Below are positions 24,101-56,546 of a stretch of 64,000 bases of DNA, in pieces (the stretch's first letter is position 1; each line of letters starts with the position of its first letter). The stretch is taken from contig NC_036464.1 in the NCBI RefSeq assembly GCF_002775205.1, positions 3,349,817 through 3,413,816 of the forward strand, in the 5' to 3' direction. This stretch comes from Xiphophorus maculatus (Eukaryota; Chordata; Actinopteri; Cyprinodontiformes; Poeciliidae). Under the pieces are notes generated by a model, which saw only the letters and a list, made by a program, of their open reading frames with translations, ran no database searches and was not told where the DNA came from. Position numbers and translations under genes: made by a program.

Positions 24101-24770
24101 AGAGTTAAACCTGAATTAATCCAGAGTTAACCTTGAATTAATCCAGTGTTAAACCTGAATTAATCCAGAGTTAAACCTGAATTAATCCAGAGTTAACCTT
24201 GAATTAATCCAGACTTAAACCTTAAATTAATCCAGAGTTAAACCTGAATTAATCCAGACTTAAACCTGAATTAATCCAAAGTTAAACCTGAATTAATCCA
24301 GACTTAAACCTGAATTAATCCAAAGTTAAACCTGAATTAATCCAGAGTTAACCTTGAATTAATCCAGAGTTAAACCTGAATTAATCCAGAGTTAACCTTG
24401 AATTAATCCAGAGTTAAGCCTGAATTAATCCAGACTTAAACCTGAATTAATCCAGAGTTAACCTTGAATTAATCCAGAGTTAACCTTGAATTAATCCAGA
24501 GTTAACCTTGAATTAATCCAAAGTTAAACCTGAATTAATCCAGAGTTAAACCTGAATTAATCCAGACTTAAACCTGAATTAATCCAGAGTTAAGCCTGAA
24601 TTAATCCAGACTTAAACCTGAATTAATCCAGAGTTAAGCCTGAATTAATCCAGACTTAAACCTGAATTAATCCAGACTTAAACCTGAATTAATCCAGAGT
24701 TAAGCCTGAATTAATCCAGAGTTAAACCTGAATTAATCCAGACTTAAACCTGAATTAATCCAGAGTTAAA
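21189..24770. repeat. 22-bp satellite array, about 163 copies
   Basis: The unit contains gttaaacctgaattaatcca preceded by ga. Main variants are AAAGTTAAACC, GAGTTAAGCC, GAGTTAACCTTG, GACTTAAACC and GTGTTAA. The order of variants repeats on a larger scale: the rare AATACAG junction occurs at 21477 and 22621, 1,144 bp (52 units) apart, followed by the same 18-unit order. Every unit carries TAATCC, the core motif of K50-type homeodomain proteins (OTX, PITX, GSC). Confidence 0.95.
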
Positions 24771-25640
24771 CTCCCCGCTGCTGCAGGAGGTTTCTGGTTT
24801 GAATCCCGGTGGATTCTCTCCTGGTACTCCAGCTGTGATTGGTAGTTGCTTCTGGGTTCGGCCAATGGATGGAGTGAAGCCGCTACAATTTCACCTGCTG
24901 TGTGACGTCACTTCCTGTCTCCTGGCCTCACCTGGACACCAGCAGGTTCATTTCTGAGGAAGAGGAGGAGGCTGGATGGACATGATGAAGAAAAGGCAGG
25001 ATGGGAGCCTAGAGGGCAGAGAGGAAGAGGAGGAGGAAGAGGAGCAGCACAGTAAATATTTAGGCCTGTGACGCGTTTTCCGCAGCGGCGTCAGCGCGCC
25101 GCGCGGTGCCAGAACCTCTGCCGGTACCGAGACCGAGCTTCAAGCAGCTTCCGGCCGGATGGAGCTGCGGGGAGCCTCGCCTCGCGGAGGTTCCGGCTGG
25201 TTCTCGGTTCCGAACCCCGGCGGCCCGCCGCACCGCGGCTCCTCCCGCACATTTCCTACCGCGCTCCTTGGCGTCAAACCGCCGCGCCGCTTCCGGACCC
25301 AGTTCCTACTTACGATTCGAGCCGGACCGGTTCTGTCCTGCTGGTTCGGTTCCGGGTTCTGTTCGGAGTCGGTGGTTCCTGCCGCACCTCTGTCACATCT
25401 CAGCCGAGGAGCGGCCGCATAGTGGCGGAGCCGACGCTGCCGCGGCGCAGAGGCGGCACGCCTCCAGCTAAAGTCAATGAGACGCTGCGGCGCAGAGGCG
25501 TCGCGCCGTAGAGAGCCGACTCTGATTGGTCAAGCCGCTGCGCAGCCTTCGTCTGATTGGCTGGAGGAGTTTCAGCTGAAAGTTTGCATGTAAAGCTCGC
25601 GAGATATCGCGAGGCTTTACGCTGTGACGCCACAAGCAGG
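24771..25640. promoter_or_regulatory. CpG-island-like region without an assigned gene
   Basis: CpG density is high over 25060-25520. A perfect inverted repeat CTCGCGA-GATA-TCGCGAG lies at 25596-25613, similar to the TCTCGCGAGA motif of TATA-less promoters. A short plus-strand frame at 24976 (ATG, acidic tail of Glu) ends at 25071; I cannot tell if it is real. Which transcript starts here is unknown. Confidence 0.4.
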
Positions 25641-31431: not shown

Positions 31432-33058
31432 CACTTAAAAATATAAACGCTACACTTTTGTTTTTGCTCCCATTTTTCATGAGATGGACTCAAAGATCTA
31501 AAATTCATTCCAGATAAACAATATTACAATTTCTTTCAAATGTTGTCCACAAATCTGCCTAAATGTTTGATAGTGAGCACTTCTGCTTTGCTGAGATAAT
31601 CCATCCCACCTCACAGGTGTGCCACATCAAGATGCTGATCTGACATCATGATTAGTGCACAGGTGTACCTTATACTGCCCACAATAAAAGGCCACTCTGA
31701 AATGCACAGTTTTGTCTCTCAGCAAAATGCCACAGATGTCGCAAGCATTGAGGGAGCGTGCAATTGGCATGCTGACAGCAGGAATGTCAACCAGATCTGT
31801 TGCTCATGCATTGAATGTTCATTTCTCCACCATAAGCCGTCTCCAAAGGCGTTTCAGAGAATATGGCAGTACATCCAACCGGCCTCACAACCGCAGACCA
31901 CGTGTAACCACACCAGCCCAGGACCTCCACATCCTGCAGGTTCACCTCCAAGATCGTCTGAGACCAGCCACTCAGACAGCTGCTGAAACAATTGGTTTGC
32001 ATAACCAAAGAATTTCTGCACAAACTGTCAGAAACCGTCTCAGGGAAGCTCAACTGCATGATCGTCGTCCTCATCAGGGTCTTAACCTGACTCCAGATGG
32101 TCACCGTAACAGACTTGAGTGGGCAAATGCTCACATTCGATGGCGTCTAGCACAGTGGAGAGGTGTTCTCTTCACGGATGAATCTCGGTTTACATTGTTC
32201 AGGGCAGATGGCAGACGGCGTGTGTGGCGTCGTGTGGGTGAGCGCTTTGCTGATGCCAATGTTGTGGATGGAGTGGACCATGGTGGTGGTGGGGTTATGG
32301 TATGGGCAGGCATCTGTTATGGACGAAGAACACAGCTGCATTTTATTGATGGCATTTTGAATGCACAGAGATACCATGATGAGATCCTGAGGCCCATTGT
32401 TGTGCCATACATCCATGAACATCACCTCATGTTTCAGCAAGATAATGCACGGCCCCATGTTGCAAGGATCTGTACACAATTCTTGGAAGCTGAAAATGTC
32501 CCAGTTCTTGGATGGCCAGTATACTCACCGGACATGTCACCCATTGAGCATGTTTGGGATGTGCTTGACCGGTGTATACGAAAGCGTGTACCAGTTCCCA
32601 CTAATATCCAGCAATGTTGCACAGCCATTGAAGAGGAGTGGGCCAACATTCCACAGGCCACAATTGACAATCTGATAAACTCTATGGGAAGAAGATGTGT
32701 TGCACTGCATGAGGCAAATGGTGGTCACACCGGCTACTGACTGGTTCTGAGTCCCCAGACCCCCAATAAAGCAAAAAAAGCACATTTCAGAGTGGCCTTT
32801 TATTGTGGGCAGCATAAGGTACACCTGTGCACTAATCATGATGTCAGATCAGCATCTTGATGTGGCACACCTGTGAGGTGGGATGGATTATCTCAGCAAA
32901 GCAGAAGTGCTCACTATCAAACATTTAGGCAGATTTGTGGACAACATTTGAAAGAAATGGTAATATTGTTTATCTGGAATGAATTTTAGATCTTTGAGTC
33001 CATCTCATGAAAAATGGGAGCAAAAACAAAAGTGTAGCGTTTATATTTTTGTTGAGTG
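31432..33058 (+). mobile_element. Intact Tc1-like transposon, 1,627 bp
   Basis: Flanked by TA at 31430-31431 and 33059-33060. Long inverted repeats of about 280 bp (31432-31706 and 32780-33058) match nearly base for base; the left end has a small deletion. The shared block includes ataaacgctacacttttgtt. The element encodes an uninterrupted transposase. Long terminal repeats of this type are usual for fish Tc1-like elements. Confidence 0.93.
31727..32740 (+). CDS. Tc1-like transposase (337 aa, intact frame)
   Basis: The ATG at 31727 (MPQMSQALRERAIGM) is the natural start; the frame is open a little further upstream. An N-terminal helix-turn-helix pair (STRSVAHALNVHFSTISRLQ, then a second at AETIGLHNQRISAQTVRNR) precedes the catalytic domain. 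The DDE triad is visible as FTDESRF, FQQDNARPH and SPIEHVWD, with 34 residues between the second Asp and the Glu, the Tc1 DD34E spacing. A Gly-rich GGGGVMVWAG block is typical. Such enzymes excise and insert the element at TA sites. No stop or frameshift is seen, so the copy may be young or active. Expression is not evident from the sequence. Confidence 0.95.
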   Translation: MPQMSQALRERAIGMLTAGMSTRSVAHALNVHFSTISRLQRRFREYGSTSNRPHNRRPRVTTPAQDLHILQVHLQDRLRPATQTAAETIGLHNQRISAQTVRNRLREAQLHDRRPHQGLNLTPDGHRNRLEWANAHIRWRLAQWRGVLFTDESRFTLFRADGRRRVWRRVGERFADANVVDGVDHGGGGVMVWAGICYGRRTQLHFIDGILNAQRYHDEILRPIVVPYIHEHHLMFQQDNARPHVARICTQFLEAENVPVLGWPVYSPDMSPIEHVWDVLDRCIRKRVPVPTNIQQCCTAIEEEWANIPQATIDNLINSMGRRCVALHEANGGHTGY

Positions 33059-34085: not shown

Positions 34086-34107
34086 GACTGAAAGTTTCTG
34101 TCCTACG

Positions 34108-37100
34108 CTATTGTTGCTCCGTTCCCTTCCTATTCTGGTGTCGCTCCGTTTCCTTCCTACTCTGGTGTCGCTCCGTTTCCTTCCTATTCTGGTGTCGCTC
34201 CGTTTCCTTCCTACTCTGGTGTCGCTCCGTTTCCTTCCTACTCTGGTGTCGCTCCGTTTCCTTTCTTGTCTGATGTCGCTCCGTTTCCTTCCTCCTCTGG
34301 CGTCGCTCCGTTTCCTTCCTATTCTGGTGTCGCTCCGTTTCCTTTCTAGTCTGGCGTCACTCCGTTTCCTTCCTACTCTGGTGTCGCTCCGTTCCCTTCC
34401 TATTGTGGCGTCGCTCCGTTTCCTTTCTAGTCTGGCGTCGCTCCGTTTACTTTCTAGTCTGGTGTCGCTCCGTTTCCTTTCTACTCTGGTGTCGCTCCGT
34501 TCCCTTCCTATTCTGGCGTCGCTCCGTTTCCTTCCTACTCTGATGTCGCTCTGTTTCCTTCCTATTCTGGTGTCGCTCCGTTTCCTTCCTACTCTGATGT
34601 CGCTCTGTTTCCTTCCTATTCTGGTGTCGCTCCGTTTACTTTCTAGTCTGGTGTCGCTCCGTTTCCTTTCTAGTCTGGTGTCGCTCCGTTTCCTTTCTAG
34701 TCTGATGTCGCTCCGTTTCCTTCCTCCTCTGGCGTCGCTCCGTTTCCTTCCTACTCTGGTGTCGCTCCGTTTCCTTCCTACTCTGGTGTCGCTCCGTTTC
34801 CTTCCTATTCTGGTGTCGCTCCGTTTCCTTTCTAGTCTGATGTCGCTCCGTTTCCTTCCTACTCTGATGTCGCTCCGTTTCCTTCCTAGTCTGGTGTCGC
34901 TCCGTTTCCTTCCTATTGTGGCGTCGCTCCGTTTCCTTTCTAGTCTGGTGTCGCTCCGTTTCCTTTCTAGTCTGGTGTCGCTCCGTTTCCTTTCTAGTCT
35001 GATGTCGCTCCGTTTCCTTCCTCCTCTGGCGTCGCTCCGTTTCCTTCCTACTCTGGTGTAGCTCCGTTTCCTTCCTACTCTGGTGTCGCTCCGTTTCCTT
35101 TCTAGTCTGGTGTCGCTCCGTTTCCTTTCTAGTCTGGCGTCGCTCCGTTTCCTTCCTAGTCTGGCGTCGCTCCGTTTCCTTCCTACTCTGGTGTAGCTCC
35201 GTTTCCTTCCTACTCTGGTGTCGCTCTGTTTCCTTCCTATTCTGGTGTCGCTCCGTTTCCTTTCTAGTCTGATGTCGCTCCGTTTCCTTCCTCCTCTGGC
35301 GTCGCTCCGTTTCCTTCCTACTCTGGTGTCGCTCCGTTTCCTTTCTAGTCTGATGTCGCTCCGTTTCCTTCCTCCTCTGGCGTCGCTCCGTTTCCTTCCT
35401 ACTCTGGTGTCGCTCCGTTTCCTTCCTACTCTGGCGTCGCTCTGTTTCCTTCCTATTGTGGCGTCGCTCCGTTTCCTTCCTACTCTGGCGTCGCTCCGTT
35501 TCCTTCCTACTCTGATGTCGCTCCGTTTCCTTCCTACTCTGGTGTCGCTCCGTTTCCTTCCTACTCTGGTGTCGCTCCGTTTCCTTCCTAGTCTGGTGTC
35601 GGTCCGTTTCCTTCCTATTGTGGCGTCGCTCCGTTTCCTTCCTACTCTGATGTCGCTCCGTTTCCTTCCTATTGTGGCGTCGCTCCGTTTCCTTCCTATT
35701 GTGGTGTCGCTCCGTTTCCTTCCTACTCGGATGTCGCTCCGTTTCCTTCCTATTCTGGCGTCGCTCCGTTTCCTTCCTACTCTGATGTCGCTCCGTTTCC
35801 TTTCTAGTCTGGCGTCACTCCGTTTCCTTCCTACTCTGGCGTCGCTCTGTTTCCTTCCTATTGTGGCGTCGCTCCGTTTCCTTTCTAGTCTGGCGTCGCT
35901 CCGTTTCCTTCCTACTCTGGCGTCGCTCTGTTTCCTTCCTATTGTGGTGTCGCTCCGTTTCCTTCCTATTGTGGTGTCGCTCCGTTTCCTTCCTATTCTG
36001 GCGTCGCTCCGTTTCCTTCCTACTCTGATGTCGCTCCGTTCCCTTCCTATTCTGGCGTCGCTCCGTTTCCTTCCTACTCTGATGTCGCTCCGTTTCCTTC
36101 CTAGTCTGGTGTCGCTCCGTTTCCTTCCTCCTCTGGCGTCACTCTGTTTCCTTCCTATTGTGGCGTCGCTCCGTTTTCTTCCTACTCTGGCGTCGCTCTG
36201 TTTCCTTCCTATTGTGGTGTCGCTCCGTTTCCTTCCTATTGTGGTGTCGCTCCGTTTCTTTTCTAGTCTGGCGTCGCTCTGTTTCCTTCCTACTCTGGCG
36301 TCGCTCTGTTTCCTTCCTATTGTGGTGTCGCTCCGTTTCCTTTCTAGTGTGGCGTCGCTCCGTTTCCTTCCTACTCTGGCGTCGCTCCGTTTCCTTCCTA
36401 CTCTGGTGTCGCTCTGTTTCCTTCCTACTCTGGTGTTGCTCCGTTTCCTTCCTACTCTGGTGTTGCTCCGTTTCCTTCCTCCTCTGGCGTCGCTCTGTTT
36501 CCTTCCTACTCTGGTGTCGGTCCGTTTCCTTCCTACTCTGGCGTCGCTCTGTTTCCTTCCTATTGTGGTGTCGCTCCGTTTCCTTTCTAGTCTGATGTCG
36601 CTCTGTTTCCTTCCTATTGTGGCGTCGCTCCGTTTCCTTTCTAGTCTGGCGTCGCTCCGTTTCCTTTCTAGTCTGGCGTCGCTCTGTTTCCTTCCTATTG
36701 TGGCGTCGCTCCGTTTCCTTTCTAGTCTGGCGTCGCTCCGTTTCCTTTCTAGTCTGGCGTCGCTCCGTTTCCTTCCTACTCTGGCGTCGCTCTGTTTCCT
36801 TCCTACTCTGGTGTCTCTCCGTTTCCTTTCTAGACTGATGTCGCTCCGTTTCCTTCCTCTTCTGGCGTCGCTCCGTTTCCTTCCTACTCTGGTGTCACTC
36901 CGTTTCCTTCATACTCTGGTGTCGCTCCGTTTCCTTCCTACTCTGGTGTTGCTCCGTTTCCTTCCTACTCTGGCGTCGCTCCGTTTCCTTCCTACTCTGG
37001 CGTCGCTCCGTTTCCTTCCTACTCGGGCGTCACTCCGTTTCCTTCCTATTCTGGTGTCGCTCCGTTTCCTTTCTAGTCTGGCGTCGCTCCGTTTCCTTCC

Positions 37101-40100
37101 TACTCTGGTGTCGCTCCGTTTCCTTCCTACTCTGGCGTCGCTCCGTTTCCTTCCTACTCTGGTGTCGCTCCGTTTCCTTTCTAGTCTGATGTCGCTCCGT
37201 TTCCTTCCTACTCTGGCGTCGCTCTGTTTCCTTCCTACTCTGGCGTCGCTCTGTTTCCTTCCTAGTCTGGCGTCGCTCCGTTTCCTTCCTAGTCTGGCGT
37301 CGCTCCGTTTCCTTCCTACTCTGGCGTCACTCCGTTTCCTTCCTATTCTGGTGTCGCTCCGTTTCCTTTCTAGTCTGGCGTCGCTCCGTTTCCTTCCTAT
37401 TGTGGCGTCGCTCCGTTTCCTTCCTACTCTGGCGTCGCTCCGTTTCCTTCCTATTGTGGCGTCGCTCCGTTTCCTTCCTATTGTGGTGTCGCTCCGTTTC
37501 CTTCCTACTCGGATGTCGCTCCGTTTCCTTCCTATTCTGGCGTCGCTCCGTTTCCTTCCTACTCTGATGTCGCTCCGTTTCCTTTCTAGTCTGGCGTCAC
37601 TCCGTTTCCTTCCTACTCTGGCGTCGCTCTGTTTCCTTCCTATTGTGGCGTCGCTCCGTTTCCTTTCTAGTCTGGCGTCGCTCCGTTTCCTTCCTACTCT
37701 GGCGTCGCTCCGTTTCCTTCCTATTGTGGTGTCGCTCCGTTTCCTTCCTACTCTGATGTCGCTCCGTTTCCTTCCTAGTCTGGTGTCGCTCCGTTTCCTT
37801 CCTCCTCTGGCGTCACTCTGTTTCCTTCCTATTGTGGCGTCGCTCCGTTTCCTTCCTACTCTGGCGTCGCTCTGTTTCCTTCCTATTATGGTGTCGCTCC
37901 GTTTCCTTCCTATTGTGGTGTCGCTCCGTTTCCTTTCTAGTCTGGCGTCGCTCCGTTTCCTTCCTACTCTGGCGTCGCTCTGTTTCCTTCCTACTCTGGC
38001 GTCGCTCTGTTTCCTTCCTATTGTGGTGTCGCTCCGTTTCCTTTCTAGTGTGGCGTCGCTCCGTTTCCTTCCTACTCTGGCGTCGCTCCGTTTCCTTCCT
38101 ACTCTGGTGTCGCTCTGTTTCCTTCCTACTCTGGTGTTGCTCCGTTTCCTTCCTACTCTGGTGTTGCTCCGTTTCCTTCCTCCTCTGGCGTCGCTCCGTT
38201 TCCTTCCTACTCTGGCGTCGCTCTGTTTCCTTCCTATTGTGGTGTCGCTCCGTTTCCTTTCTAGTCTGATGTCGCTCTGTTTCCTTCCTATTGTGGCGTC
38301 GCTCCGTTTCCTTTCTAGTCTGGCGTCGCTCCGTTTCCTTTCTAGTCTGGCGTCGCTCTGTTTCCTTCCTATTGTGGCGTCGCTCCGTTTCCTTTCTAGT
38401 CTGGCGTCGCTCCGTTTCCTTTCTAGTCTGGCGTCGCTCCGTTTCCTTCCTACTCTGGTGTCGCTCCGTTTCCTTTCTAGACTGATGTCGCTCCGTTTCC
38501 TTCCTCCTCTGGCGTCGCTCCGTTTCCTTCCTACTCTGGTGTCACTCCGTTTCCTTCATACTCTGGTGTCGCTCCGTTTCCTTCCTACTCTGGTGTTGCT
38601 CCGTTTCCTTCCTACTCTGGCGTCGCTCCGTTTCCTTCCTACTCTGGCGTCGCTCCGTTTCCTTCCTACTCTGGCGTCACTCCGTTTCCTTCCTATTCTG
38701 GCGTCGCTCCGTTTCCTTTCTAGTCTGGCGTCGCTCCGTTTCCTTCCTAGTCTGGCGTCGCTCCGTTTCCTTCCTCCTCTGGCGTCGCTCCGTTTCCTTC
38801 CTATTCTGGTGTCGCTCCGTTTCCTTCCTAGTCTGGTGTCGCTCCGTTTCCTTCCTACTCTGATGTCGCTCCGTTTCCTTCCTAGTCTGGCGTCGCTCCG
38901 TTTCCTTCCTATTCTGACGTCGCTCCGTTTCCTTTCTAGTCTGATGTCGCTCCGTTTCCTTCCTCCTCTGGCGTCGCTCCGTTTCCTTCCTACTCTGGTG
39001 TCGCTCCGTTTCCTTCCTAGTCTGGTGTCGCTCCGTTTCCTTCCTACTCTGGTGTTGCTCCGTTTCCTTCCTATTCTGGTGTCGCTCTGTTTCCTTCCTA
39101 TTCTGATGTCGCTCCGTTTCCTTCCTAGTCTGGTGTCGCTCCGTTTCCTTCCTACTCTGGTGTCGCTCCGTTTCCTTCCTATTCTGATGTCGCTCCGTTT
39201 CCTTCCTAGTCTGGTGTCGCTCCGTTTCCTTCCTACTCTGGTGTCGCTCCGTTTCCTTCCTACTCTGATGTCGTTCCGTTTCCTTCCTAGTCTGGTGTCG
39301 CTCCGTTTCCTTCCTCCTCTGGCGTCACTCTGTTTCCTTCCTATTGTGGCGTCGCTCCGTTTCCTTCCTACTCTGGCGTCGCTCTGTTTCCTTCCTATTG
39401 TGGTGTCGCTCCGTTTCCTTCCTATTGTGGTGTCGCTCCGTTTCCTTTCTAGTCTGGCGTCGCTCCGTTTCCTTCCTACTCTGGCGTCGCTCTGTTTCCT
39501 TCCTACTCTGGCGTCGCTCTGTTTCCTTCCTATTGTGGTGTCGCTCCGTTTCCTTTCTAGTGTGGCGTCGCTCCGTTTCCTTCCTACTCTGGCGTCGCTC
39601 CGTTTCCTTCCTACTCTGGTGTCGCTCTGTTTCCTTCCTACTCTGGTGTTGCTCCGTTTCCTTCCTACTCTGGTGTTGCTCCGTTTCCTTCCTCCTCTGG
39701 CGTCGCTCTGTTTCCTTCCTACTCTGGTGTCGGTCCGTTTCCTTCCTACTCTGGCGTCGCTCTGTTTCCTTCCTATTGTGGTGTCGCTCCGTTTCCTTTC
39801 TAGTCTGATGTCGCTCTGTTTCCTTCCTATTGTGGCGTCGCTCCGTTTCCTTTCTAGTCTGGCGTCGCTCCGTTTCCTTTCTAGTCTGGCGTCGCTCTGT
39901 TTCCTTCCTATTGTGGCGTCGCTCCGTTTCCTTTCTAGTCTGGCGTCGCTCCGTTTCCTTTCTAGTCTGGCGTCGCTCCGTTTCCTTCCTACTCTGGCGT
40001 CGCTCTGTTTCCTTCCTACTCTGGTGTCGCTCCGTTTCCTTTCTAGACTGATGTCGCTCCGTTTCCTTCCTCCTCTGGCGTCGCTCCGTTTCCTTCCTAC

Positions 40101-43100
40101 TCTGGTGTCACTCCGTTTCCTTCATACTCTGGTGTCGCTCCGTTTCCTTCCTACTCTGGTGTTGCTCCGTTTCCTTCCTACTCTGGCGTCGCTCCGTTTC
40201 CTTCCTACTCTGGCGTCGCTCCGTTTCCTTCCTACTCTGGCGTCACTCCGTTTCCTTCCTATTCTGGCGTCGCTCCGTTTCCTTTCTAGTCTGGCGTCGC
40301 TCCGTTTCCTTCCTACTCTGGTGTCGCTCCGTTTCCTTCCTACTCTGGCGTCGCTCCGTTTCCTTCCTACTCTGGTGTCGCTCCGTTTCCTTCCTACTCT
40401 GGCGTCGCTCCGTTTCCTTCCTACTCTGGTGTCGCTCCGTTTCCTTTCTAGTCTGATGTCGCTCCGTTTCCTTCCTACTCTGGCGTCGCTCCGTTTCCTT
40501 CCTAGTCTGATGTCGCTCCGTTTCCTTCCTACTCTGGCGTCGCTCCGTTTCCTTCCTACTCTGGCGTCACTCCGTTTCCTTCCTATTCTGGTGTCGCTCC
40601 GTTTCCTTTCTAGTCTGGCGTCGCTCCGTTTCCTTCCTACTCTGGTGTCGCTCCGTTTCCTTCCTACTCTGGCGTCGCTCCGTTTCCTTCCTACTCTGGT
40701 GTCGCTCCGTTTCCTTTCTAGTCTGATGTCGCTCCGTTTCCTTCCTACTCTGGCGTCGCTCTGTTTCCTTCCTACTCTGGCGTCGCTCTGTTTCCTTCCT
40801 AGTCTGGCGTCGCTCCGTTTCCTTTCTAGTCTGGCGTCGCTCTGTTTCCTTCCTACTCTGGCGTCGCTCTGTTTCCTTCCTATTGTGGAGTTGCTCCGTT
40901 TCCTTCCTACTCTGGCGTCGCTCTGTTTCCTTCCTATTGTGGAGTTGCTCCGTTTCCTTCCTACTCTGATGTCGCTCCGTTTCCTTTCTAGTCTGGCGTC
41001 GCTCCGTTTCCTTCCTAGTCTGGCGTCGCTCCGTTCCCTTCCTATTCTGGTGTCGCTCCGTTTCCTTCCTACTCTGGTGTCGCTCCGTTTCCTTCCTAGT
41101 CTGGCGTCGCTCCGTTTCCTTTCTAGTCTGATGTCGCTCCGTTTCCTTCCTCCTCTGGCGTCGCTCCGTTTCCTTCCTATTCTGGTGTCGCTCCGTTTCC
41201 TTCCTAGTCTGGTGTCGCTCCGTTTCCTTCCTACTCTGATGTCGCTCCGTTTCCTTCCTAGTCTGGCGTCGCTCCGTTTCCTTCCTATTCTGACGTCGCT
41301 CCGTTTCCTTTCTAGTCTGATGTCGCTCCGTTTCCTTCCTCCTCTGGCGTCGCTCCGTTTCCTTCCTACTCTGGTGTCGCTCCGTTTCCTTCCTAGTCTG
41401 GTGTCGCTCCGTTTCCTTCCTACTCTGGTGTTGCTCCGTTTCCTTCCTATTCTGGTGTCGCTCTGTTTCCTTCCTATTCTGATGTCGCTCCGTTTCCTTC
41501 CTAGTCTGGTGTCGCTCCGTTTCCTTCCTACTCTGGTGTCGCTCCGTTTCCTTCCTATTCTGATGTCGCTCCGTTTCCTTCCTAGTCTGGTGTCGCTCCG
41601 TTTCCTTCCTACTCTGGTGTCGCTCCGTTTCCTTCCTACTCTGATGTCGTTCCGTTTCCTTCCTAGTCTGGTGTCGCTCCGTTTCCTTCCTCCTCTGGCG
41701 TCACTCTGTTTCCTTCCTATTGTGGCGTCGCTCCGTTTCCTTCCTACTCTGGCGTCGCTCTGTTTCCTTCCTATTGTGGTGTCGCTCCGTTTCCTTCCTA
41801 TTGTGGTGTCGCTCCGTTTCCTTTCTAGTCTGGCGTCGCTCCGTTTCCTTCCTACTCTGGCGTCGCTCTGTTTCCTTCCTACTCTGGCGTCGCTCTGTTT
41901 CCTTCCTATTGTGGTGTCGCTCCGTTTCCTTTCTAGTGTGGCGTCGCTCCGTTTCCTTCCTACTCTGGCGTCGCTCCGTTTCCTTCCTACTCTGGTGTCG
42001 CTCTGTTTCCTTCCTACTCTGGTGTTGCTCCGTTTCCTTCCTACTCTGGTGTTGCTCCGTTTCCTTCCTCCTCTGGCGTCGCTCTGTTTCCTTCCTACTC
42101 TGGTGTCGGTCCGTTTCCTTCCTACTCTGGCGTCGCTCTGTTTCCTTCCTATTGTGGTGTCGCTCCGTTTCCTTTCTAGTCTGATGTCGCTCTGTTTCCT
42201 TCCTATTGTGGCGTCGCTCCGTTTCCTTTCTAGTCTGGCGTCGCTCCGTTTCCTTTCTAGTCTGGCGTCGCTCTGTTTCCTTCCTATTGTGGCGTCGCTC
42301 CGTTTCCTTTCTAGTCTGGCGTCGCTCCGTTTCCTTTCTAGTCTGGCGTCGCTCCGTTTCCTTCCTACTCTGGCGTCGCTCTGTTTCCTTCCTACTCTGG
42401 TGTCGCTCCGTTTCCTTTCTAGACTGATGTCGCTCCGTTTCCTTCCTCCTCTGGCGTCGCTCCGTTTCCTTCCTACTCTGGTGTCACTCCGTTTCCTTCA
42501 TACTCTGGTGTCGCTCCGTTTCCTTCCTACTCTGGTGTTGCTCCGTTTCCTTCCTACTCTGGCGTCGCTCCGTTTCCTTCCTACTCTGGCGTCGCTCCGT
42601 TTCCTTCCTACTCTGGCGTCACTCCGTTTCCTTCCTATTCTGGCGTCGCTCCGTTTCCTTTCTAGTCTGGCGTCGCTCCGTTTCCTTCCTACTCTGGTGT
42701 CGCTCCGTTTCCTTCCTACTCTGGCGTCGCTCCGTTTCCTTCCTACTCTGGTGTCGCTCCGTTTCCTTCCTACTCTGGCGTCGCTCCGTTTCCTTCCTAC
42801 TCTGGTGTCGCTCCGTTTCCTTTCTAGTCTGATGTCGCTCCGTTTCCTTCCTACTCTGGCGTCGCTCCGTTTCCTTCCTAGTCTGATGTCGCTCCGTTTC
42901 CTTCCTACTCTGGCGTCGCTCCGTTTCCTTCCTACTCTGGCGTCACTCCGTTTCCTTCCTATTCTGGTGTCGCTCCGTTTCCTTTCTAGTCTGGCGTCGC
43001 TCCGTTTCCTTCCTACTCTGGTGTCGCTCCGTTTCCTTCCTACTCTGGCGTCGCTCCGTTTCCTTCCTACTCTGGTGTCGCTCCGTTTCCTTTCTAGTCT

Positions 43101-46100
43101 GATGTCGCTCCGTTTCCTTCCTACTCTGGCGTCGCTCTGTTTCCTTCCTACTCTGGCGTCGCTCTGTTTCCTTCCTAGTCTGGCGTCGCTCCGTTTCCTT
43201 TCTAGTCTGGCGTCGCTCTGTTTCCTTCCTACTCTGGCGTCGCTCTGTTTCCTTCCTATTGTGGAGTTGCTCCGTTTCCTTCCTACTCTGGCGTCGCTCT
43301 GTTTCCTTCCTATTGTGGAGTTGCTCCGTTTCCTTCCTACTCTGATGTCGCTCCGTTTCCTTTCTAGTCTGGCGTCGCTCCGTTTCCTTCCTAGTCTGGC
43401 GTCGCTCCGTTCCCTTCCTATTCTGGTGTCGCTCCGTTTCCTTCCTACTCTGGTGTCGCTCCGTTTCCTTCCTAGTCTGGCGTCGCTCCGTTTCCTTTCT
43501 AGTCTGATGTCGCTCCGTTTCCTTCCTCCTCTGGCGTCGCTCCGTTTCCTTCCTATTCTGGTGTCGCTCCGTTTCCTTCCTAGTCTGGTGTCGCTCCGTT
43601 TCCTTCCTACTCTGATGTCGCTCCGTTTCCTTCCTAGTCTGGCGTCGCTCCGTTTCCTTCCTATTCTGACGTCGCTCCGTTTCCTTTCTAGTCTGATGTC
43701 GCTCCGTTTCCTTCCTCCTCTGGCGTCGCTCCGTTTCCTTCCTACTCTGGTGTCGCTCCGTTTCCTTCCTAGTCTGGTGTCGCTCCGTTTCCTTCCTACT
43801 CTGGTGTTGCTCCGTTTCCTTCCTATTCTGGTGTCGCTCTGTTTCCTTCCTATTCTGATGTCGCTCCGTTTCCTTCCTAGTCTGGTGTCGCTCCGTTTCC
43901 TTCCTACTCTGGTGTCGCTCCGTTTCCTTCCTATTCTGATGTCGCTCCGTTTCCTTCCTAGTCTGGTGTCGCTCCGTTTCCTTCCTACTCTGGTGTCGCT
44001 CCGTTTCCTTCCTACTCTGATGTCGTTCCGTTTCCTTCCTAGTCTGGTGTCGCTCCGTTTCCTTCCTCCTCTGGCGTCACTCTGTTTCCTTCCTATTGTG
44101 GCGTCGCTCCGTTTCCTTCCTACTCTGGCGTCGCTCTGTTTCCTTCCTATTGTGGTGTCGCTCCGTTTCCTTCCTATTGTGGTGTCGCTCCGTTTCCTTT
44201 CTAGTCTGGCGTCGCTCCGTTTCCTTCCTACTCTGGCGTCGCTCTGTTTCCTTCCTACTCTGGCGTCGCTCTGTTTCCTTCCTATTGTGGTGTCGCTCCG
44301 TTTCCTTTCTAGTGTGGCGTCGCTCCGTTTCCTTCCTACTCTGGCGTCGCTCCGTTTCCTTCCTACTCTGGTGTCGCTCTGTTTCCTTCCTACTCTGGTG
44401 TTGCTCCGTTTCCTTCCTACTCTGGTGTTGCTCCGTTTCCTTCCTCCTCTGGCGTCGCTCTGTTTCCTTCCTACTCTGGTGTCGGTCCGTTTCCTTCCTA
44501 CTCTGGCGTCGCTCTGTTTCCTTCCTATTGTGGTGTCGCTCCGTTTCCTTTCTAGTCTGATGTCGCTCTGTTTCCTTCCTATTGTGGCGTCGCTCCGTTT
44601 CCTTTCTAGTCTGGCGTCGCTCCGTTTCCTTTCTAGTCTGGCGTCGCTCTGTTTCCTTCCTATTGTGGCGTCGCTCCGTTTCCTTTCTAGTCTGGCGTCG
44701 CTCCGTTTCCTTTCTAGTCTGGCGTCGCTCCGTTTCCTTCCTACTCTGGCGTCGCTCTGTTTCCTTCCTACTCTGGTGTCGCTCCGTTTCCTTTCTAGAC
44801 TGATGTCGCTCCGTTTCCTTCCTCCTCTGGCGTCGCTCCGTTTCCTTCCTACTCTGGTGTCACTCCGTTTCCTTCATACTCTGGTGTCGCTCCGTTTCCT
44901 TCCTACTCTGGTGTTGCTCCGTTTCCTTCCTACTCTGGCGTCGCTCCGTTTCCTTCCTACTCTGGCGTCGCTCCGTTTCCTTCCTACTCTGGCGTCACTC
45001 CGTTTCCTTCCTATTCTGGCGTCGCTCCGTTTCCTTTCTAGTCTGGCGTCGCTCCGTTTCCTTCCTACTCTGGTGTCGCTCCGTTTCCTTCCTACTCTGG
45101 CGTCGCTCCGTTTCCTTCCTACTCTGGTGTCGCTCCGTTTCCTTCCTACTCTGGCGTCGCTCCGTTTCCTTCCTACTCTGGTGTCGCTCCGTTTCCTTTC
45201 TAGTCTGATGTCGCTCCGTTTCCTTCCTACTCTGGCGTCGCTCCGTTTCCTTCCTAGTCTGATGTCGCTCCGTTTCCTTCCTACTCTGGCGTCGCTCCGT
45301 TTCCTTCCTACTCTGGCGTCACTCCGTTTCCTTCCTATTCTGGTGTCGCTCCGTTTCCTTTCTAGTCTGGCGTCGCTCCGTTTCCTTCCTACTCTGGTGT
45401 CGCTCCGTTTCCTTCCTACTCTGGCGTCGCTCCGTTTCCTTCCTACTCTGGTGTCGCTCCGTTTCCTTTCTAGTCTGATGTCGCTCCGTTTCCTTCCTAC
45501 TCTGGCGTCGCTCTGTTTCCTTCCTACTCTGGCGTCGCTCTGTTTCCTTCCTAGTCTGGCGTCGCTCCGTTTCCTTTCTAGTCTGGCGTCGCTCTGTTTC
45601 CTTCCTACTCTGGCGTCGCTCTGTTTCCTTCCTATTGTGGAGTTGCTCCGTTTCCTTCCTACTCTGGCGTCGCTCTGTTTCCTTCCTATTGTGGAGTTGC
45701 TCCGTTTCCTTCCTACTCTGATGTCGCTCCGTTTCCTTTCTAGTCTGGCGTCGCTCCGTTTCCTTCCTAGTCTGGCGTCGCTCCGTTCCCTTCCTATTCT
45801 GGTGTCGCTCCGTTTCCTTCCTACTCTGGTGTCGCTCCGTTTCCTTCCTAGTCTGGCGTCGCTCCGTTTCCTTTCTAGTCTGATGTCGCTCCGTTTCCTT
45901 CCTCCTCTGGCGTCGCTCCGTTTCCTTCCTATTCTGGTGTCGCTCCGTTTCCTTCCTAGTCTGGTGTCGCTCCGTTTCCTTCCTACTCTGATGTCGCTCC
46001 GTTTCCTTCCTAGTCTGGCGTCGCTCCGTTTCCTTCCTATTCTGACGTCGCTCCGTTTCCTTTCTAGTCTGATGTCGCTCCGTTTCCTTCCTCCTCTGGC

Positions 46101-49100
46101 GTCGCTCCGTTTCCTTCCTACTCTGGTGTCGCTCCGTTTCCTTCCTAGTCTGGTGTCGCTCCGTTTCCTTCCTACTCTGGTGTTGCTCCGTTTCCTTCCT
46201 ATTCTGGTGTCGCTCTGTTTCCTTCCTATTCTGATGTCGCTCCGTTTCCTTCCTAGTCTGGTGTCGCTCCGTTTCCTTCCTACTCTGGTGTCGCTCCGTT
46301 TCCTTCCTATTCTGATGTCGCTCCGTTTCCTTCCTAGTCTGGTGTCGCTCCGTTTCCTTCCTACTCTGGTGTCGCTCCGTTTCCTTCCTACTCTGATGTC
46401 GTTCCGTTTCCTTCCTAGTCTGGTGTCGCTCCGTTTCCTTCCTCCTCTGGCGTCACTCTGTTTCCTTCCTATTGTGGCGTCGCTCCGTTTCCTTCCTACT
46501 CTGGCGTCGCTCTGTTTCCTTCCTATTGTGGTGTCGCTCCGTTTCCTTCCTATTGTGGTGTCGCTCCGTTTCCTTTCTAGTCTGGCGTCGCTCCGTTTCC
46601 TTCCTACTCTGGCGTCGCTCTGTTTCCTTCCTACTCTGGCGTCGCTCTGTTTCCTTCCTATTGTGGTGTCGCTCCGTTTCCTTTCTAGTGTGGCGTCGCT
46701 CCGTTTCCTTCCTACTCTGGCGTCGCTCCGTTTCCTTCCTACTCTGGTGTCGCTCTGTTTCCTTCCTACTCTGGTGTTGCTCCGTTTCCTTCCTACTCTG
46801 GTGTTGCTCCGTTTCCTTCCTCCTCTGGCGTCGCTCTGTTTCCTTCCTACTCTGGTGTCGGTCCGTTTCCTTCCTACTCTGGCGTCGCTCTGTTTCCTTC
46901 CTATTGTGGTGTCGCTCCGTTTCCTTTCTAGTCTGATGTCGCTCTGTTTCCTTCCTATTGTGGCGTCGCTCCGTTTCCTTTCTAGTCTGGCGTCGCTCCG
47001 TTTCCTTTCTAGTCTGGCGTCGCTCTGTTTCCTTCCTATTGTGGCGTCGCTCCGTTTCCTTTCTAGTCTGGCGTCGCTCCGTTTCCTTTCTAGTCTGGCG
47101 TCGCTCCGTTTCCTTCCTACTCTGGCGTCGCTCTGTTTCCTTCCTACTCTGGTGTCGCTCCGTTTCCTTTCTAGACTGATGTCGCTCCGTTTCCTTCCTC
47201 CTCTGGCGTCGCTCCGTTTCCTTCCTACTCTGGTGTCACTCCGTTTCCTTCATACTCTGGTGTCGCTCCGTTTCCTTCCTACTCTGGTGTTGCTCCGTTT
47301 CCTTCCTACTCTGGCGTCGCTCCGTTTCCTTCCTACTCTGGCGTCGCTCCGTTTCCTTCCTACTCTGGCGTCACTCCGTTTCCTTCCTATTCTGGCGTCG
47401 CTCCGTTTCCTTTCTAGTCTGGCGTCGCTCCGTTTCCTTCCTACTCTGGTGTCGCTCCGTTTCCTTCCTACTCTGGCGTCGCTCCGTTTCCTTCCTACTC
47501 TGGTGTCGCTCCGTTTCCTTCCTACTCTGGCGTCGCTCCGTTTCCTTCCTACTCTGGTGTCGCTCCGTTTCCTTTCTAGTCTGATGTCGCTCCGTTTCCT
47601 TCCTACTCTGGCGTCGCTCCGTTTCCTTCCTAGTCTGATGTCGCTCCGTTTCCTTCCTACTCTGGCGTCGCTCCGTTTCCTTCCTACTCTGGCGTCACTC
47701 CGTTTCCTTCCTATTCTGGTGTCGCTCCGTTTCCTTTCTAGTCTGGCGTCGCTCCGTTTCCTTCCTACTCTGGTGTCGCTCCGTTTCCTTCCTACTCTGG
47801 CGTCGCTCCGTTTCCTTCCTACTCTGGTGTCGCTCCGTTTCCTTTCTAGTCTGATGTCGCTCCGTTTCCTTCCTACTCTGGCGTCGCTCTGTTTCCTTCC
47901 TACTCTGGCGTCGCTCTGTTTCCTTCCTAGTCTGGCGTCGCTCCGTTTCCTTTCTAGTCTGGCGTCGCTCTGTTTCCTTCCTACTCTGGCGTCGCTCTGT
48001 TTCCTTCCTATTGTGGAGTTGCTCCGTTTCCTTCCTACTCTGGCGTCGCTCTGTTTCCTTCCTATTGTGGAGTTGCTCCGTTTCCTTCCTACTCTGATGT
48101 CGCTCCGTTTCCTTTCTAGTCTGGCGTCGCTCCGTTTCCTTCCTAGTCTGGCGTCGCTCCGTTCCCTTCCTATTCTGGTGTCGCTCCGTTTCCTTCCTAC
48201 TCTGGTGTCGCTCCGTTTCCTTCCTAGTCTGGCGTCGCTCCGTTTCCTTTCTAGTCTGATGTCGCTCCGTTTCCTTCCTCCTCTGGCGTCGCTCCGTTTC
48301 CTTCCTATTCTGGTGTCGCTCCGTTTCCTTCCTAGTCTGGTGTCGCTCCGTTTCCTTCCTACTCTGATGTCGCTCCGTTTCCTTCCTAGTCTGGCGTCGC
48401 TCCGTTTCCTTCCTATTCTGACGTCGCTCCGTTTCCTTTCTAGTCTGATGTCGCTCCGTTTCCTTCCTCCTCTGGCGTCGCTCCGTTTCCTTCCTACTCT
48501 GGTGTCGCTCCGTTTCCTTCCTAGTCTGGTGTCGCTCCGTTTCCTTCCTACTCTGGTGTTGCTCCGTTTCCTTCCTATTCTGGTGTCGCTCTGTTTCCTT
48601 CCTATTCTGATGTCGCTCCGTTTCCTTCCTAGTCTGGTGTCGCTCCGTTTCCTTCCTACTCTGGTGTCGCTCCGTTTCCTTCCTATTCTGATGTCGCTCC
48701 GTTTCCTTCCTAGTCTGGTGTCGCTCCGTTTCCTTCCTACTCTGGTGTCGCTCCGTTTCCTTCCTACTCTGATGTCGTTCCGTTTCCTTCCTAGTCTGGT
48801 GTCGCTCCGTTTCCTTCCTCCTCTGGCGTCACTCTGTTTCCTTCCTATTGTGGCGTCGCTCCGTTTCCTTCCTACTCTGGCGTCGCTCTGTTTCCTTCCT
48901 ATTGTGGTGTCGCTCCGTTTCCTTCCTATTGTGGTGTCGCTCCGTTTCCTTTCTAGTCTGGCGTCGCTCCGTTTCCTTCCTACTCTGGCGTCGCTCTGTT
49001 TCCTTCCTACTCTGGCGTCGCTCTGTTTCCTTCCTATTGTGGTGTCGCTCCGTTTCCTTTCTAGTGTGGCGTCGCTCCGTTTCCTTCCTACTCTGGCGTC

Positions 49101-51304
49101 GCTCCGTTTCCTTCCTACTCTGGTGTCGCTCTGTTTCCTTCCTACTCTGGTGTTGCTCCGTTTCCTTCCTACTCTGGTGTTGCTCCGTTTCCTTCCTCCT
49201 CTGGCGTCGCTCTGTTTCCTTCCTACTCTGGTGTCGGTCCGTTTCCTTCCTACTCTGGCGTCGCTCTGTTTCCTTCCTATTGTGGTGTCGCTCCGTTTCC
49301 TTTCTAGTCTGATGTCGCTCTGTTTCCTTCCTATTGTGGCGTCGCTCCGTTTCCTTTCTAGTCTGGCGTCGCTCCGTTTCCTTTCTAGTCTGGCGTCGCT
49401 CTGTTTCCTTCCTATTGTGGCGTCGCTCCGTTTCCTTTCTAGTCTGGCGTCGCTCCGTTTCCTTTCTAGTCTGGCGTCGCTCCGTTTCCTTCCTACTCTG
49501 GCGTCGCTCTGTTTCCTTCCTACTCTGGTGTCGCTCCGTTTCCTTTCTAGACTGATGTCGCTCCGTTTCCTTCCTCCTCTGGCGTCGCTCCGTCTCCTTC
49601 CTACTCTGGTGTCACTCCGTTTCCTTCATACTCTGGTGTCGCTCCGTTTCCTTCCTACTCTGGTGTTGCTCCGTTTCCTTCCTACTCTGGCGTCGCTCCG
49701 TTTCCTTCCTACTCTGGCGTCGCTCCGTTTCCTTCCTACTCTGGCGTCACTCCGTTTCCTTCCTATTCTGGCGTCGCTCCGTTTCCTTTCTAGTCTGGCG
49801 TCGCTCCGTTTCCTTCCTACTCTGGTGTCGCTCCGTTTCCTTCCTACTCTGGCGTCGCTCCGTTTCCTTCCTACTCTGGTGTCGCTCCGTTTCCTTCCTA
49901 CTCTGGCGTCGCTCCGTTTCCTTCCTACTCTGGTGTCGCTCCGTTTCCTTTCTAGTCTGATGTCGCTCCGTTTCCTTCCTACTCTGGCGTCGCTCCGTTT
50001 CCTTCCTAGTCTGATGTCGCTCCGTTTCCTTCCTACTCTGGCGTCGCTCCGTTTCCTTCCTACTCTGGCGTCACTCCGTTTCCTTCCTATTCTGGTGTCG
50101 CTCCGTTTCCTTTCTAGTCTGGCGTCGCTCCGTTTCCTTCCTACTCTGGTGTCGCTCCGTTTCCTTCCTACTCTGGCGTCGCTCCGTTTCCTTCCTACTC
50201 TGGTGTCGCTCCGTTTCCTTTCTAGTCTGATGTCGCTCCGTTTCCTTCCTACTCTGGCGTCGCTCTGTTTCCTTCCTACTCTGGCGTCGCTCTGTTTCCT
50301 TCCTAGTCTGGCGTCGCTCCGTTTCCTTTCTAGTCTGGCGTCGCTCTGTTTCCTTCCTACTCTGGCGTCGCTCTGTTTCCTTCCTATTGTGGAGTTGCTC
50401 CGTTTCCTTCCTACTCTGGCGTCGCTCTGTTTCCTTCCTATTGTGGAGTTGCTCCGTTTCCTTCCTACTCTGATGTCGCTCCGTTTCCTTTCTAGTCTGG
50501 CGTCGCTCCGTTTCCTTCCTAGTCTGGCGTCGCTCCGTTCCCTTCCTATTCTGGTGTCGCTCCGTTTCCTTCCTACTCTGGTGTCGCTCCGTTTCCTTCC
50601 TAGTCTGGCGTCGCTCCGTTTCCTTTCTAGTCTGATGTCGCTCCGTTTCCTTCCTCCTCTGGCGTCGCTCCGTTTCCTTCCTATTCTGGTGTCGCTCCGT
50701 TTCCTTCCTAGTCTGGTGTCGCTCCGTTTCCTTCCTACTCTGATGTCGCTCCGTTTCCTTCCTAGTCTGGCGTCGCTCCGTTTCCTTCCTATTCTGACGT
50801 CGCTCCGTTTCCTTTCTAGTCTGATGTCGCTCCGTTTCCTTCCTCCTCTGGCGTCGCTCCGTTTCCTTCCTACTCTGGTGTCGCTCCGTTTCCTTCCTAG
50901 TCTGGTGTCGCTCCGTTTCCTTCCTACTCTGGTGTTGCTCTGTTTCCTTCCTACTCTGGTGTTGCTCTGTTTCCTTCCTATTCTGGTGTCGCTCTGTTTC
51001 CTTCCTATTCTGATGTCGCTCCGTTTCCTTCCTAGTCTGGTGTCGCTCCGTTTCCTTCCTACTCTGGTGTCGCTCCGTTTCCTTCCTATTCTGATGTCGC
51101 TCCGTTTCCTTCCTAGTCTGGCGTCGCTCCGTTTCCTTCCTATTCTGATGTCGCTCCGTTTCCTTCCTATTCTGGTGTCGCTCCGTTTCCTTCCTATTCT
51201 GATGTCGCTCCGTTTCCTTCCTATTCTGGTGTCGCTCCGTTTCCTTCCTATTCTGGTGTCGCTCCGTTTCCTTCCTATTCTGGTGTCGCTCCGTTTCCTT
51301 TATT
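34108..51304. repeat. 17.2-kb satellite of a 27-bp unit with 2,376-bp higher-order repeats
   Basis: About 637 tandem copies of a unit containing gtcgctccgtttccttccta followed by ctctggt. The unit lacks a stop in one frame, producing a spurious frame of more than 5,000 codons (SLRFLPTLV repeats). From about 39300 the array repeats every 2,376 bp (88 units): identical segments start at 39344, 41720, 44096, 46472 and 48848. Less regular older blocks start at 36158 and 37832 (1,674 bp, 62 units, apart). Copies are nearly identical; one visible change is cgtctcc at 49591. The plus strand is pyrimidine-rich with about two CpG per unit. Confidence 0.97.
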
Positions 51305-51346
51305 CTCTTTTCTACTTCAGAAAGTTTCCAAAGTGTTTTCGGATAT

Positions 51347-54459: not shown

Positions 54460-56337
54460 TCACATCTGGAGGCAAACAGGAAGTGGCTGTTAGAGACGAG
54501 CCAATCAGGCGCTCCGATCAGCAGCAGGTAACTCACCTGGACAGCAGCGCTGTGCAGCCAGTTTTCTTTGTCTCCACCCATCTTCATGCAGGAGAAAAGC
54601 TCACAGACGGCAGGAAGAGCCAGACGCTCCTGGACAGGAAACAGGAAGTACAATTCACCAGGCTGGACGAAACTGGTTTCAAACCAGTCTAAACCAGTGT
54701 GAGCTGGTCTATCCTACCTGAGCCTGGCTCCTCTTCTTCAGCAGCCACTTGTCCTCCTCCTCCTGCTCCTCGGCCGCGCCTCCTGCTGCTCCTCTGGAGG
54801 CCGATCCTGGCAGCACCCACAGGTCGGCCTGGAGGGGGCGCTGGAACGGGGAGCAGGTCTGGTTCTGGGAGGCGTGGCTCCTCCTCAGGTTCTCCTTACC
54901 CTCGGCTGCTCCTGGGTGGAGCCAGGCCTCCAGGATGGCCTGAACCTGCAGCAGAGAAGCGTTAACGCCTCCATCCACGGCCGACAGCAGCTCTCACCTG
55001 ATTGGCTGATACCTTCTGCTCCTGCTGCCTGTGGAAGCCCGTAGGCGGGGCGTTCTTGACAGCAGGTGTGGCGATGGGCGGGGCGTTTTTGTCCACAGGT
55101 ACGCCGTTCTTGTCCCGGCCCTCCTGCTGTAGCAGCCAGCGGCTCAGCGCCTCCTTCCCACAGTTCTCCTCGCAGACGCAGTCGCCGTAGGAGGAGCACG
55201 TCTCGTTGGCCCTGCAGGTCTGCCTCAGTGGCGCCACCTGCTGCAGCCAGAGCTCCAGGTTGGGGGCGGGGCCAGAGCCGGGGCTGGGCGGAGCCTTCAG
55301 GCACCGCAGCTGGCCCAGGTTCTCGATCTCCATAGTGTGGCCAGTCTGGCGGCAGGAGGAGCAGTCGGCGGCGCCGCGGCCGGCCAGCCAGTCGCCGGAG
55401 GCCCAGTCCTCCTGGAAGGGCCTCAGCACGCGCCGCCATTGCTCGCCGTCACTCTTTGCCATGGCAACGGTGGGCGGGGTCACCAGCCAGTCGCTCAGCT
55501 CCTCCTCGCTCAACTCCGACTCATCGATCTTCTCAATAGAGAAGGAGGAGCTGCAGCTGCTGCTGGCCCGCTCCCTACCCCCTTGGTCCTGGTCCTGGTT
55601 CTGGTCATTCAGGAGCCATGCCTCCAGGTCCCTTAGCTGGCCCCAGGCCTTCAGGAAGTCCATGGAGGCCGGGATGGGACAAGAAGTCTGCCAAACAAGA
55701 ACCAGACTGGGTCAGGCTCCACCCAACAGAACCAACAGAAACCAAAGTACAGGTTTTTATAGACCAGGAGTCTGCTGATTGGTGGTCCACTAGAACCACC
55801 AGGTTCTGCTCACCTTGGTTTCCTTCTGCTTCAGCAGCCAATCCTGAGGGTTCTTACTGGCCTGGTAACCAATCAGAGAGCTGCTGCTAACTGGACGTTT
55901 CCCCAGTAGCCAATCACCCAGAGCCGCCGCCTCCAGCTGCTGCAAACAGAACCAGAACCAGTCAGACCAGAACCAGGACCAGAACCAGTCAGTTATGACC
56001 CAAACTCACCTGCTGTCTGGCTCCAAGTGAGCAGCTCTGTACCTGGGTTCTCTGAGGGGCGGGGCTCCGAGAGGCCACGCCCTCCTCCGCCTGCGCACCA
56101 GAACAAGCCGGATCAGAACCAGAACTCGTCCACAGATCACATGACAGACCGTCGTGTTACCTGGGCGGCGATGCTGCCGAACGAGGTGATGGCCTGTCTC
56201 AGGGAGCGGGAGTCGGCATGGAAACGCATTTCAGGGGTTTCCTCAGGGGCCAAGCTCAGAGAGGCCAACCTGCACAGCCAGGAGGAGAAAACAAGCGCAC
56301 CTCCGTTCATCAGAGGAACAGAGGACAATCAGGCGGC

Positions 56338-56369
<32 letters not shown>

Positions 56370-56505
56370 TGTTCCTACTTCTCCATGCAGCTGGTCAGCT
56401 GGTTGCTCAGGTCGTTGTTGTTGTTGGAGTTCTGCAGCTGATGGGCGATGACCTCAAACTGACCTCTGAGCTGCAGGACCAGAGCCACAGGGTAAGAACC
56501 AGGTC

Positions 56506-56546
<41 letters not shown>

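What the first reader, a model, noticed from the sequence alone, without database searches (positions are those of the whole stretch)
34108..51304. 17-kb satellite with near-identical 2,376-bp higher-order repeats
About 637 copies of a 27-bp unit. Five or more consecutive blocks of exactly 88 units start at 39344, 41720, 44096, 46472 and 48848, with almost no differences. Older 62- and 56-unit spacings lie upstream. This is centromere-like, recently homogenised organisation in a gene-bearing region.
Basis: seen in the sequence. Interest (0 to 1): 0.75.

Follow-up and report, generated by a model that had tools for sequence, protein, structure and literature searches.

The report
Fish-like minisatellite with nested block repeats
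A 17-kilobase run of 637 copies of a 27-letter DNA word, recently enlarged by copying the same 88-word paragraph about five times, lies between ordinary genes and looks like a very large unstable minisatellite rather than a centromere.

Summary
The window holds 637 in-register 27-bp units (34095-51293). An exact 2,376-bp (88-unit) period runs from 38757 to 50940: 5.13 copies, one mismatch in 9,808 compared bases; random unit pairs are 90% identical. Upstream lies an older, eroded 56-66-unit period (110 aligned units, 98.05% identity, 14 unit-sized gaps), so the '62- and 56-unit spacings' are confirmed. An unrelated 22-bp array in the window also carries a 52-53-unit duplication.

The centromere analogy is not supported: the array is 17 kb, lies between recognised genes, and has no strict CENP-B box. 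A 5,398-codon open frame is explained by composition. Best reading: a large non-coding minisatellite (VNTR type) of a vertebrate, probably a teleost, that grows by homology-directed unequal exchange, each large duplication supplying homology for the next. A simple simulation reached such block numbers mainly when exchange required homology (53 against 5 of 480 snapshots). Four blocks are letter-identical and no reads were available, so the copy number could still be an assembly error. New member of a known kind.

The parts
34095..51293 (.). 27-bp minisatellite array, 637 in-register units, commonest unit (+) TTTCCTTCCTACTCTGGTGTCGCTCCG
   Evidence: TRF; register and unit counts
38757..50940 (.). 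exact 2,376-bp (88-unit) higher-order period, 5.13 copies, one mismatch
38766..41141 (.). 88-unit block 1 (phase taken at the first matching whole unit)
41142..43517 (.). 88-unit block 2, identical to block 1
43518..45893 (.). 88-unit block 3, identical to block 1
45894..48269 (.). 88-unit block 4, identical to block 1
48270..50645 (.). 88-unit block 5; single T to C difference at 49594
50646..51293 (.). partial sixth copy: 10 exact units, then one unit replaced by two, five more matching units, then terminal units
35607..40439 (.). older, eroded higher-order period of 56-66 units (units 56-176 against 122-234: 110 aligned units, 98.05% identity, 14 unit gaps); overlaps block 1
34095..35606. 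left edge of the array (units 0-55), outside the four alignments reported; first unit degenerate
21196..24771 (.). unrelated 22-bp minisatellite with its own long duplication (654 bp exact at lag 52 units, 518 bp exact at lag 53)
54965..56729 (-). NCOA4-like gene: extent of the two ARA70-matching frames only; full gene limits not determined. The array lies on its 3' side
   Evidence: Pfam PF12489 in frames 54965-55711 and 56457-56729
16928..18671 (-). C2H2 zinc-finger gene, nearest recognised host gene on the other side
   Evidence: Pfam PF00096 in two frames
31688..32737 (+). open Tc1-like transposase frame between the two long arrays
   Evidence: Pfam DDE_3 and HTH_Tnp_Tc3_2

Best explanation
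A large non-coding minisatellite in a gene region that grows by homology-directed unequal exchange within the array (unequal sister-chromatid or inter-allelic recombination, or an equivalent template-switch repair). Rare exchanges duplicate long segments in register. A first round made a period of about 60 units that has since eroded through point changes and single-unit gains and losses. A later exchange between two places 88 units apart that shared about 300 bp of perfect homology made the 88-unit duplication. Once two nearly identical 88-unit copies existed, misalignment by 88 units was the best-matched register, so the block multiplied to about five copies. Shown: the two layers, the unbroken 27-bp register, the 304-bp overhang beyond five copies, and that 91-94% of sites with at least 250-300 bp of perfect off-register homology now lie at multiples of 88 units. 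Inferred: the exchange mechanism, its timing, and that copy number still varies in the population in 2,376-bp steps. No function for the organism is indicated.
For: Every unit column keeps one register through 638 units including a partial last one. Exact 88-unit period with one mismatch in 9,808 bp. Overhang of 304 bp beyond five copies, against at most 130 bp of exact match in 20 unit shuffles. Older period at 98.05% identity with unit-sized gaps. Similar behaviour in an unrelated 22-bp array: exact runs of 654 and 518 bp, at most 126 bp in 20 shuffles. Share of off-register perfect homology at multiples of 88 units: 0.717 at a 100-bp threshold, 0.868 at 200, 0.912 at 250, 0.944 at 300. Simulation over six settings: at least 4.5 copies of a period of 40 units or more in 53 of 480 snapshots with homology-gated exchange, 5 of 480 with event-matched ungated exchange.
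Against: No reads, no second individual and no related species were available, so neither copy number nor ongoing exchange is shown. The overhang could also be what a later deletion left of a sixth block. A first simulation with gated exchange never reached 4.5 copies (0 of 84 snapshots, maximum 4.0), and one ungated setting did (5 of 80), so the result depends on parameters; snapshots of one run (8 per run, 10 runs per setting) are not independent. A rolling-circle or break-induced amplification would leave a similar product.
Confidence: 0.7

Rival explanations
1. Assembly artefact: the true array has fewer (or more) 88-unit blocks and the assembler unrolled or collapsed a cycle in its graph.
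For: Blocks 1-4 are letter-identical over whole 2,376-bp lengths, which is what an unrolled graph cycle would give; no reads could be inspected, and the own-genome search did not complete.
Against: Block 5 carries its own difference at 49594. No stray indel breaks the register of the units, which suggests accurate reads (inference). The older upstream period and the 22-bp array show that this region makes such duplications anyway, unless those were misassembled too.
Confidence: 0.15
2. A segment was amplified in one step by rolling-circle or break-induced replication, rather than by repeated unequal exchange.
For: Four identical blocks and one difference fit a single burst.
Against: The same data fit successive in-register exchanges; nothing computed here separates the two. 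This rival shares the homology requirement and differs from the best explanation only in the number of steps.
Confidence: 0.2
3. A centromeric or pericentromeric satellite, or a remnant of one.
For: Near-identical blocks of more divergent monomers, as in alpha-satellite HORs (about 70% between monomers, up to 97-100% between blocks; passage of PMC8122249 seen).
Against: 17 kb in all, recognised genes on both sides, no strict CENP-B box match (motif recalled), monomers 90% alike, and a long duplication also in a small 22-bp array. Other copies elsewhere in the genome could not be sought.
Confidence: 0.03
4. A giant repetitive coding exon: one + frame is open for 5,398 codons (35197-51393), repeating FLPTLVSLR.
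For: Open frame, unit length a multiple of three, no frameshifts.
Against: Two stops in 5,733 codons of that frame over the array match the 0.3% per unit expected from column composition. Of the variants present in six or more units, 2 of 26 possible synonymous and 13 of 54 possible amino-acid-changing changes are seen in this frame, the reverse of coding constraint. Splice context was not examined.
Confidence: 0.02

Closest known systems
Large vertebrate minisatellites / VNTRs, for example the 30-bp repeat in human CACNA1C (TRACT)
   Same: Unit of about 30 bp and an array of kilobases to tens of kilobases in a gene region; 3-30+ kb for TRACT (start of the abstract of PMC13131567, listing). 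[quoted passage not shown] 2025, PMC12452837, which is not held).
   Different: TRACT is intronic and its length polymorphism is reported; here the array appears intergenic and polymorphism is untested. Multi-copy identical blocks are not mentioned in the passages that I saw; the word 'higher-order' does not occur in that paper's main text.
Alpha-satellite higher-order repeats of primate centromeres
   Same: Blocks of many diverged monomers repeated with near identity (passage of PMC8122249).
   Different: Monomer 27 bp rather than 171 bp (171 recalled and in a passage of PMC4053949), monomers 90% rather than about 70% alike, 17 kb rather than megabases, no strict CENP-B box, not at a shown centromere.
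Higher-order 5S rDNA arrays of pikes (Esox)
   Same: Higher-order organisation of a tandem repeat in a teleost (title and start of abstract of PMC5437419, listing).
   Different: Gene-derived rDNA unit, not a short non-coding minisatellite; paper not read beyond the listing.
Smith's unequal-crossover model of tandem repeats
   Same: Explains tandem-repeat periodicities without selection (recalled; named in passages of PMC8122249).
   Different: A model, not a locus; in the simulation here, a homology requirement made blocks of 4.5 copies or more far commoner.

Membership tests
minisatellite / VNTR | short tandem units (about 7-100 bp; range recalled, 7 bp as lower limit also in the abstract of PMC8096271) in a euchromatic array of about 0.5-30 kb | tested here: met
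   27-bp units, 17.2 kb, recognised genes on both sides; length range from a PMC8122249 passage. Euchromatic state itself is inferred from the genes, not measured
minisatellite / VNTR | length polymorphism between individuals | not testable with these tools
   single sequence only
higher-order repeat array | multi-monomer blocks more alike than the monomers within them | tested here: met
   one mismatch in 9,808 bp between blocks against 90.0% between unit pairs
centromeric satellite | very long array (megabase scale in PMC4053949 passage) at the centromere | tested here: not met
   17.2 kb, both ends inside the window, genes on both sides; chromosomal position and other copies could not be searched
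centromeric satellite | CENP-B box | tested here: not met
   0 matches to a strict recalled motif on either strand of the window; many centromeres lack it (recalled), so this weighs little
centromeric satellite | CENP-A chromatin | not testable with these tools
   no chromatin data
repetitive coding exon | purifying selection on the reading frame | tested here: not met
   excess of amino-acid-changing over synonymous common variants, and stops at the level expected from composition

The most novel reading that the evidence does not exclude
The array is a self-feeding recombination hotspot: CpG observed/expected is 1.20 over 17 kb against 0.61 in the rest of the window, so in a teleost without PRDM9-directed recombination it would look like a giant CpG island, draw meiotic breaks, and use its own homology to ratchet up ever larger blocks (about 60, then 88 units).
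Probability: 0.1. Interest if true: 0.6.

Novelty: new member of a known kind. Interest (0 to 1): 0.3.

Why it matters
It is a compact natural record of how higher-order repeats can arise away from a centromere: two layers of different age in one array, plus similar behaviour in an unrelated neighbouring array. It offers a small, sequenceable model for early steps that are hard to see in megabase centromeres, and it is a probable hypervariable marker locus. If the copy number is an assembly error, it is a useful warning instead.

Tried and rejected
Coding repeat: tested and rejected. Secondary structure of the unit as a cause of fork stalling: one three-unit stretch, both strands as single-stranded DNA, folds no better than shuffles, z -0.71 and -0.44. 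G-quadruplex motif (four runs of three or more G, loops 1-7): none in the array, 29 overlapping motif starts elsewhere in the window; three tandem telomere repeats: none in the window; human PRDM9 13-mer: three in the window, none in the array (motifs recalled). Rfam at gathering threshold and ARAGORN on the window: nothing. A 24-letter unit pattern in bacterial/archaeal and viral contig collections: 0 matches each, as expected for an animal repeat. Published sequence of the unit: 0 papers for six words of 14-17 letters. Literature on minisatellite or fish higher-order repeats: searches (5 papers; 2; 1, pike 5S rDNA; 6 found, 5 listed; 12; 77 found, 6 listed; 1; 66 found, 15 listed) gave no description of this array in the listings, but I opened passages of only five papers. 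PMC10502081 (passages) had nothing on higher-order blocks. Flanking direct or inverted repeats that might mark a transposon around the array were sought within each flank; none stands out, but the two flanks were not compared with each other by tool. The first simulation was not event-matched and gave at most 4.0 copies gated and 2.02 ungated; the second was matched; both are reported.
Full report
What is there. The window contains one array of 27-bp units from 34094 to 51300 (TRF). Cut in one register it gives 637 full units of 52 distinct types, and every unit column is dominated by one to three bases throughout, so no insertion or deletion breaks the register. Mean identity of two units taken at random is 90.0%. 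The exact period runs from 38757 to 50940, 12,184 bp or 5.13 copies, with a single mismatch, T to C at 49594 in the fifth block, in 9,808 compared bases. Written as a string of unit types, blocks 1-4 are letter-identical and block 5 differs in one unit. A partial sixth copy follows: 10 further units exact, one unit replaced by two, five more matching units, then terminal units.

Older layers. With the repeated blocks left out, self-alignment at unit level finds units 56-176 against 122-234 (110 aligned units, 58 base differences, 98.05% identity, 14 unit-sized gaps), units 73-123 against 191-243 (51 units, 98.5%, 2 gaps), units 107-117 against 238-248 (11 units, 99.7%), and the overhang of the recent period (17 units, 99.6%, 1 gap). 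The longest exact runs are 549, 309, 308, 304, 277 and 264 bp at lags 119, 58, 56, 88, 66 and 62 (also 57) units; unit shuffles gave at most 130 bp in 20 trials. If neutral rates of 2e-9 to 1e-8 per base and generation are assumed (recalled), one difference in 12,184 bp corresponds to about 8,000-41,000 generations, with 95% limits that over these rates span about 200 to 230,000, and the older layer to about 1-5 million. These figures assume that all blocks separated at once and ignore gene conversion and CpG effects; at any one rate the older layer is more than tenfold older even at the upper limit for the recent one.

Controls in the same window. One search lists 27 TRF rows; I examined the main array and four of the larger others. 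An unrelated 22-bp array (21196-24771) carries 654 bp exact at lag 52 units and 518 bp exact at lag 53, against 126 bp at most in 20 unit shuffles. A 41-unit array of a different 27-bp unit (9174-10292) shows runs of 5-11 units at lags 2, 4, 6 and 8 only. The two smallest arrays (9 units of 51 bp, 14 units of 14 bp) showed no run of five units, but are too short to show long duplications. So long in-register duplication is seen in two of these five arrays.

Surroundings. I chose 10 frames by eye for a Pfam scan, out of 152 frames of at least 80 aa outside the five masked arrays; the others were not scanned. The matches suggest, all on the minus strand, an ion-channel/ankyrin gene (frames 1604-1888 and 4172-4765; the ion-channel matches are below their curated cut-offs), a parkin-like gene (ubiquitin in 14215-14754, zf-RING_14 in 13425-13778, IBR in 12246-12848), a C2H2 zinc-finger gene (16928-18671) and an NCOA4-like gene (ARA70 in 54965-55711 and 56457-56729); a Tc1-like transposase frame lies at 31688-32737 on the plus strand. 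The names parkin and NCOA4 are my reading of the domains with recalled protein sequences. Gene set and repeat style point to a vertebrate, most likely a teleost (inference); the species was not identified. The nearer ARA70 frame ends 3.7 kb from the array. Of seven minus-strand poly(A)-signal words between the array and 54800, the first in the direction of transcription is at 54056, 2.8 kb from the array; the other six are nearer the array, so where the transcript ends is not known. The zinc-finger gene is 15.4 kb away on the other side.

Is it coding, structural or centromeric? One plus frame is open for 5,398 codons, but two stops in 5,733 codons are what column composition predicts (0.3% per unit), and variants present in at least six units favour amino-acid-changing (13 of 54 possible) over synonymous changes (2 of 26). 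Single strands of one three-unit stretch fold no better than shuffles. No G4 motif lies in the array, and there is no strict CENP-B box and no run of three telomere repeats in the window. Array size and neighbours fit the description of minisatellites as 0.5-30 kb euchromatic arrays of vertebrates and others in PMC8122249 (passages seen), not that of megabase-sized centromere arrays in PMC4053949 (passages seen). The latter also reports higher-order repeats as widespread in animals and plants, so block structure alone says little about novelty.

Mechanism. A tandem duplication without homology would give a period over a whole number of blocks plus a chance extension. Here the exact period exceeds five blocks by 304 bp, more than the at most 130 bp of exact match in shuffles, as expected if the founding exchange lay within a tract of about that much perfect homology; a later deletion that left part of a sixth block would look alike. 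After the first doubling, register 88 is self-reinforcing: the share of off-register perfect homology at multiples of 88 units is 71.7% at a threshold of 100 bp, 82.5% at 150, 86.8% at 200, 91.2% at 250 and 94.4% at 300. In a simple simulation with six parameter settings, periods of at least 40 units reached 4.5 copies in 53 of 480 snapshots when exchange required eight identical units, and in 5 of 480 when the same number of exchanges ignored homology, all five in one setting. An earlier run gave 0 of 84 for both, with 4 of 84 gated and 0 of 84 ungated snapshots at three copies or more. Snapshots within a run are not independent and rates were chosen by me, so the simulation supports the idea without proving it. 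Unequal sister-chromatid exchange, inter-allelic exchange and one-step amplification are not separated by these data.

CpG content. The array has CpG observed/expected 1.20 against 0.61 elsewhere in the window. Vertebrates without PRDM9-directed recombination, swordtail fish among them, show raised recombination at CpG islands (PMC5519329, passages seen). Against a general rule for fish, a paper in the same listing reports that PRDM9 drives hotspots in salmonids (PMC11703093, title and start of abstract only). Which kind of fish this is, and whether the array is methylated or a hotspot, is untested; I keep it as the novel case only.

Limits. No reads, relatives or other parts of the genome could be examined: the own-genome search was unanswered in five attempts. 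Because four blocks are identical, the exact copy number rests on the assembly. Searches for six words of the unit in print found 0 papers; no claim is made that such arrays are unreported in fish.

Verdict. Observation confirmed; interpretation partly supported. An unusually clear example of an ordinary kind of object: a large minisatellite with nested higher-order repeats. Interest 0.3.

Noticed in passing
21196-24771: 22-bp minisatellite of about 162 units with its own long duplication (52-53 units; exact runs of 654 and 518 bp).
   Followed up: yes
35197-51393 (+): A 5,398-codon open frame across the array; explained by composition, but a likely source of a false giant-protein annotation.
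   Followed up: yes
34094-51300: CpG observed/expected 1.20 over 17 kb against 0.61 in the rest of the window; the array would be called a giant CpG island.
   Followed up: partly
31688-32737 (+): Open Tc1-like transposase frame of 350 codons, with long inverted terminal sequences visible by eye around it (about 31430-33060).
   Followed up: partly
4766-4970, 7834-8331, 9174-10292: Three more minisatellites (14-, 51- and 27-bp units), besides smaller TRF rows; an ankyrin-coding frame (4169-4789 minus) runs into the 14-bp array.
   Followed up: partly
12246-14754 (-): Parkin-like gene whose ubiquitin, RING0 and IBR coding frames lie within about 2.5 kb, very compact compared with the human gene (size recalled).
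   Followed up: no
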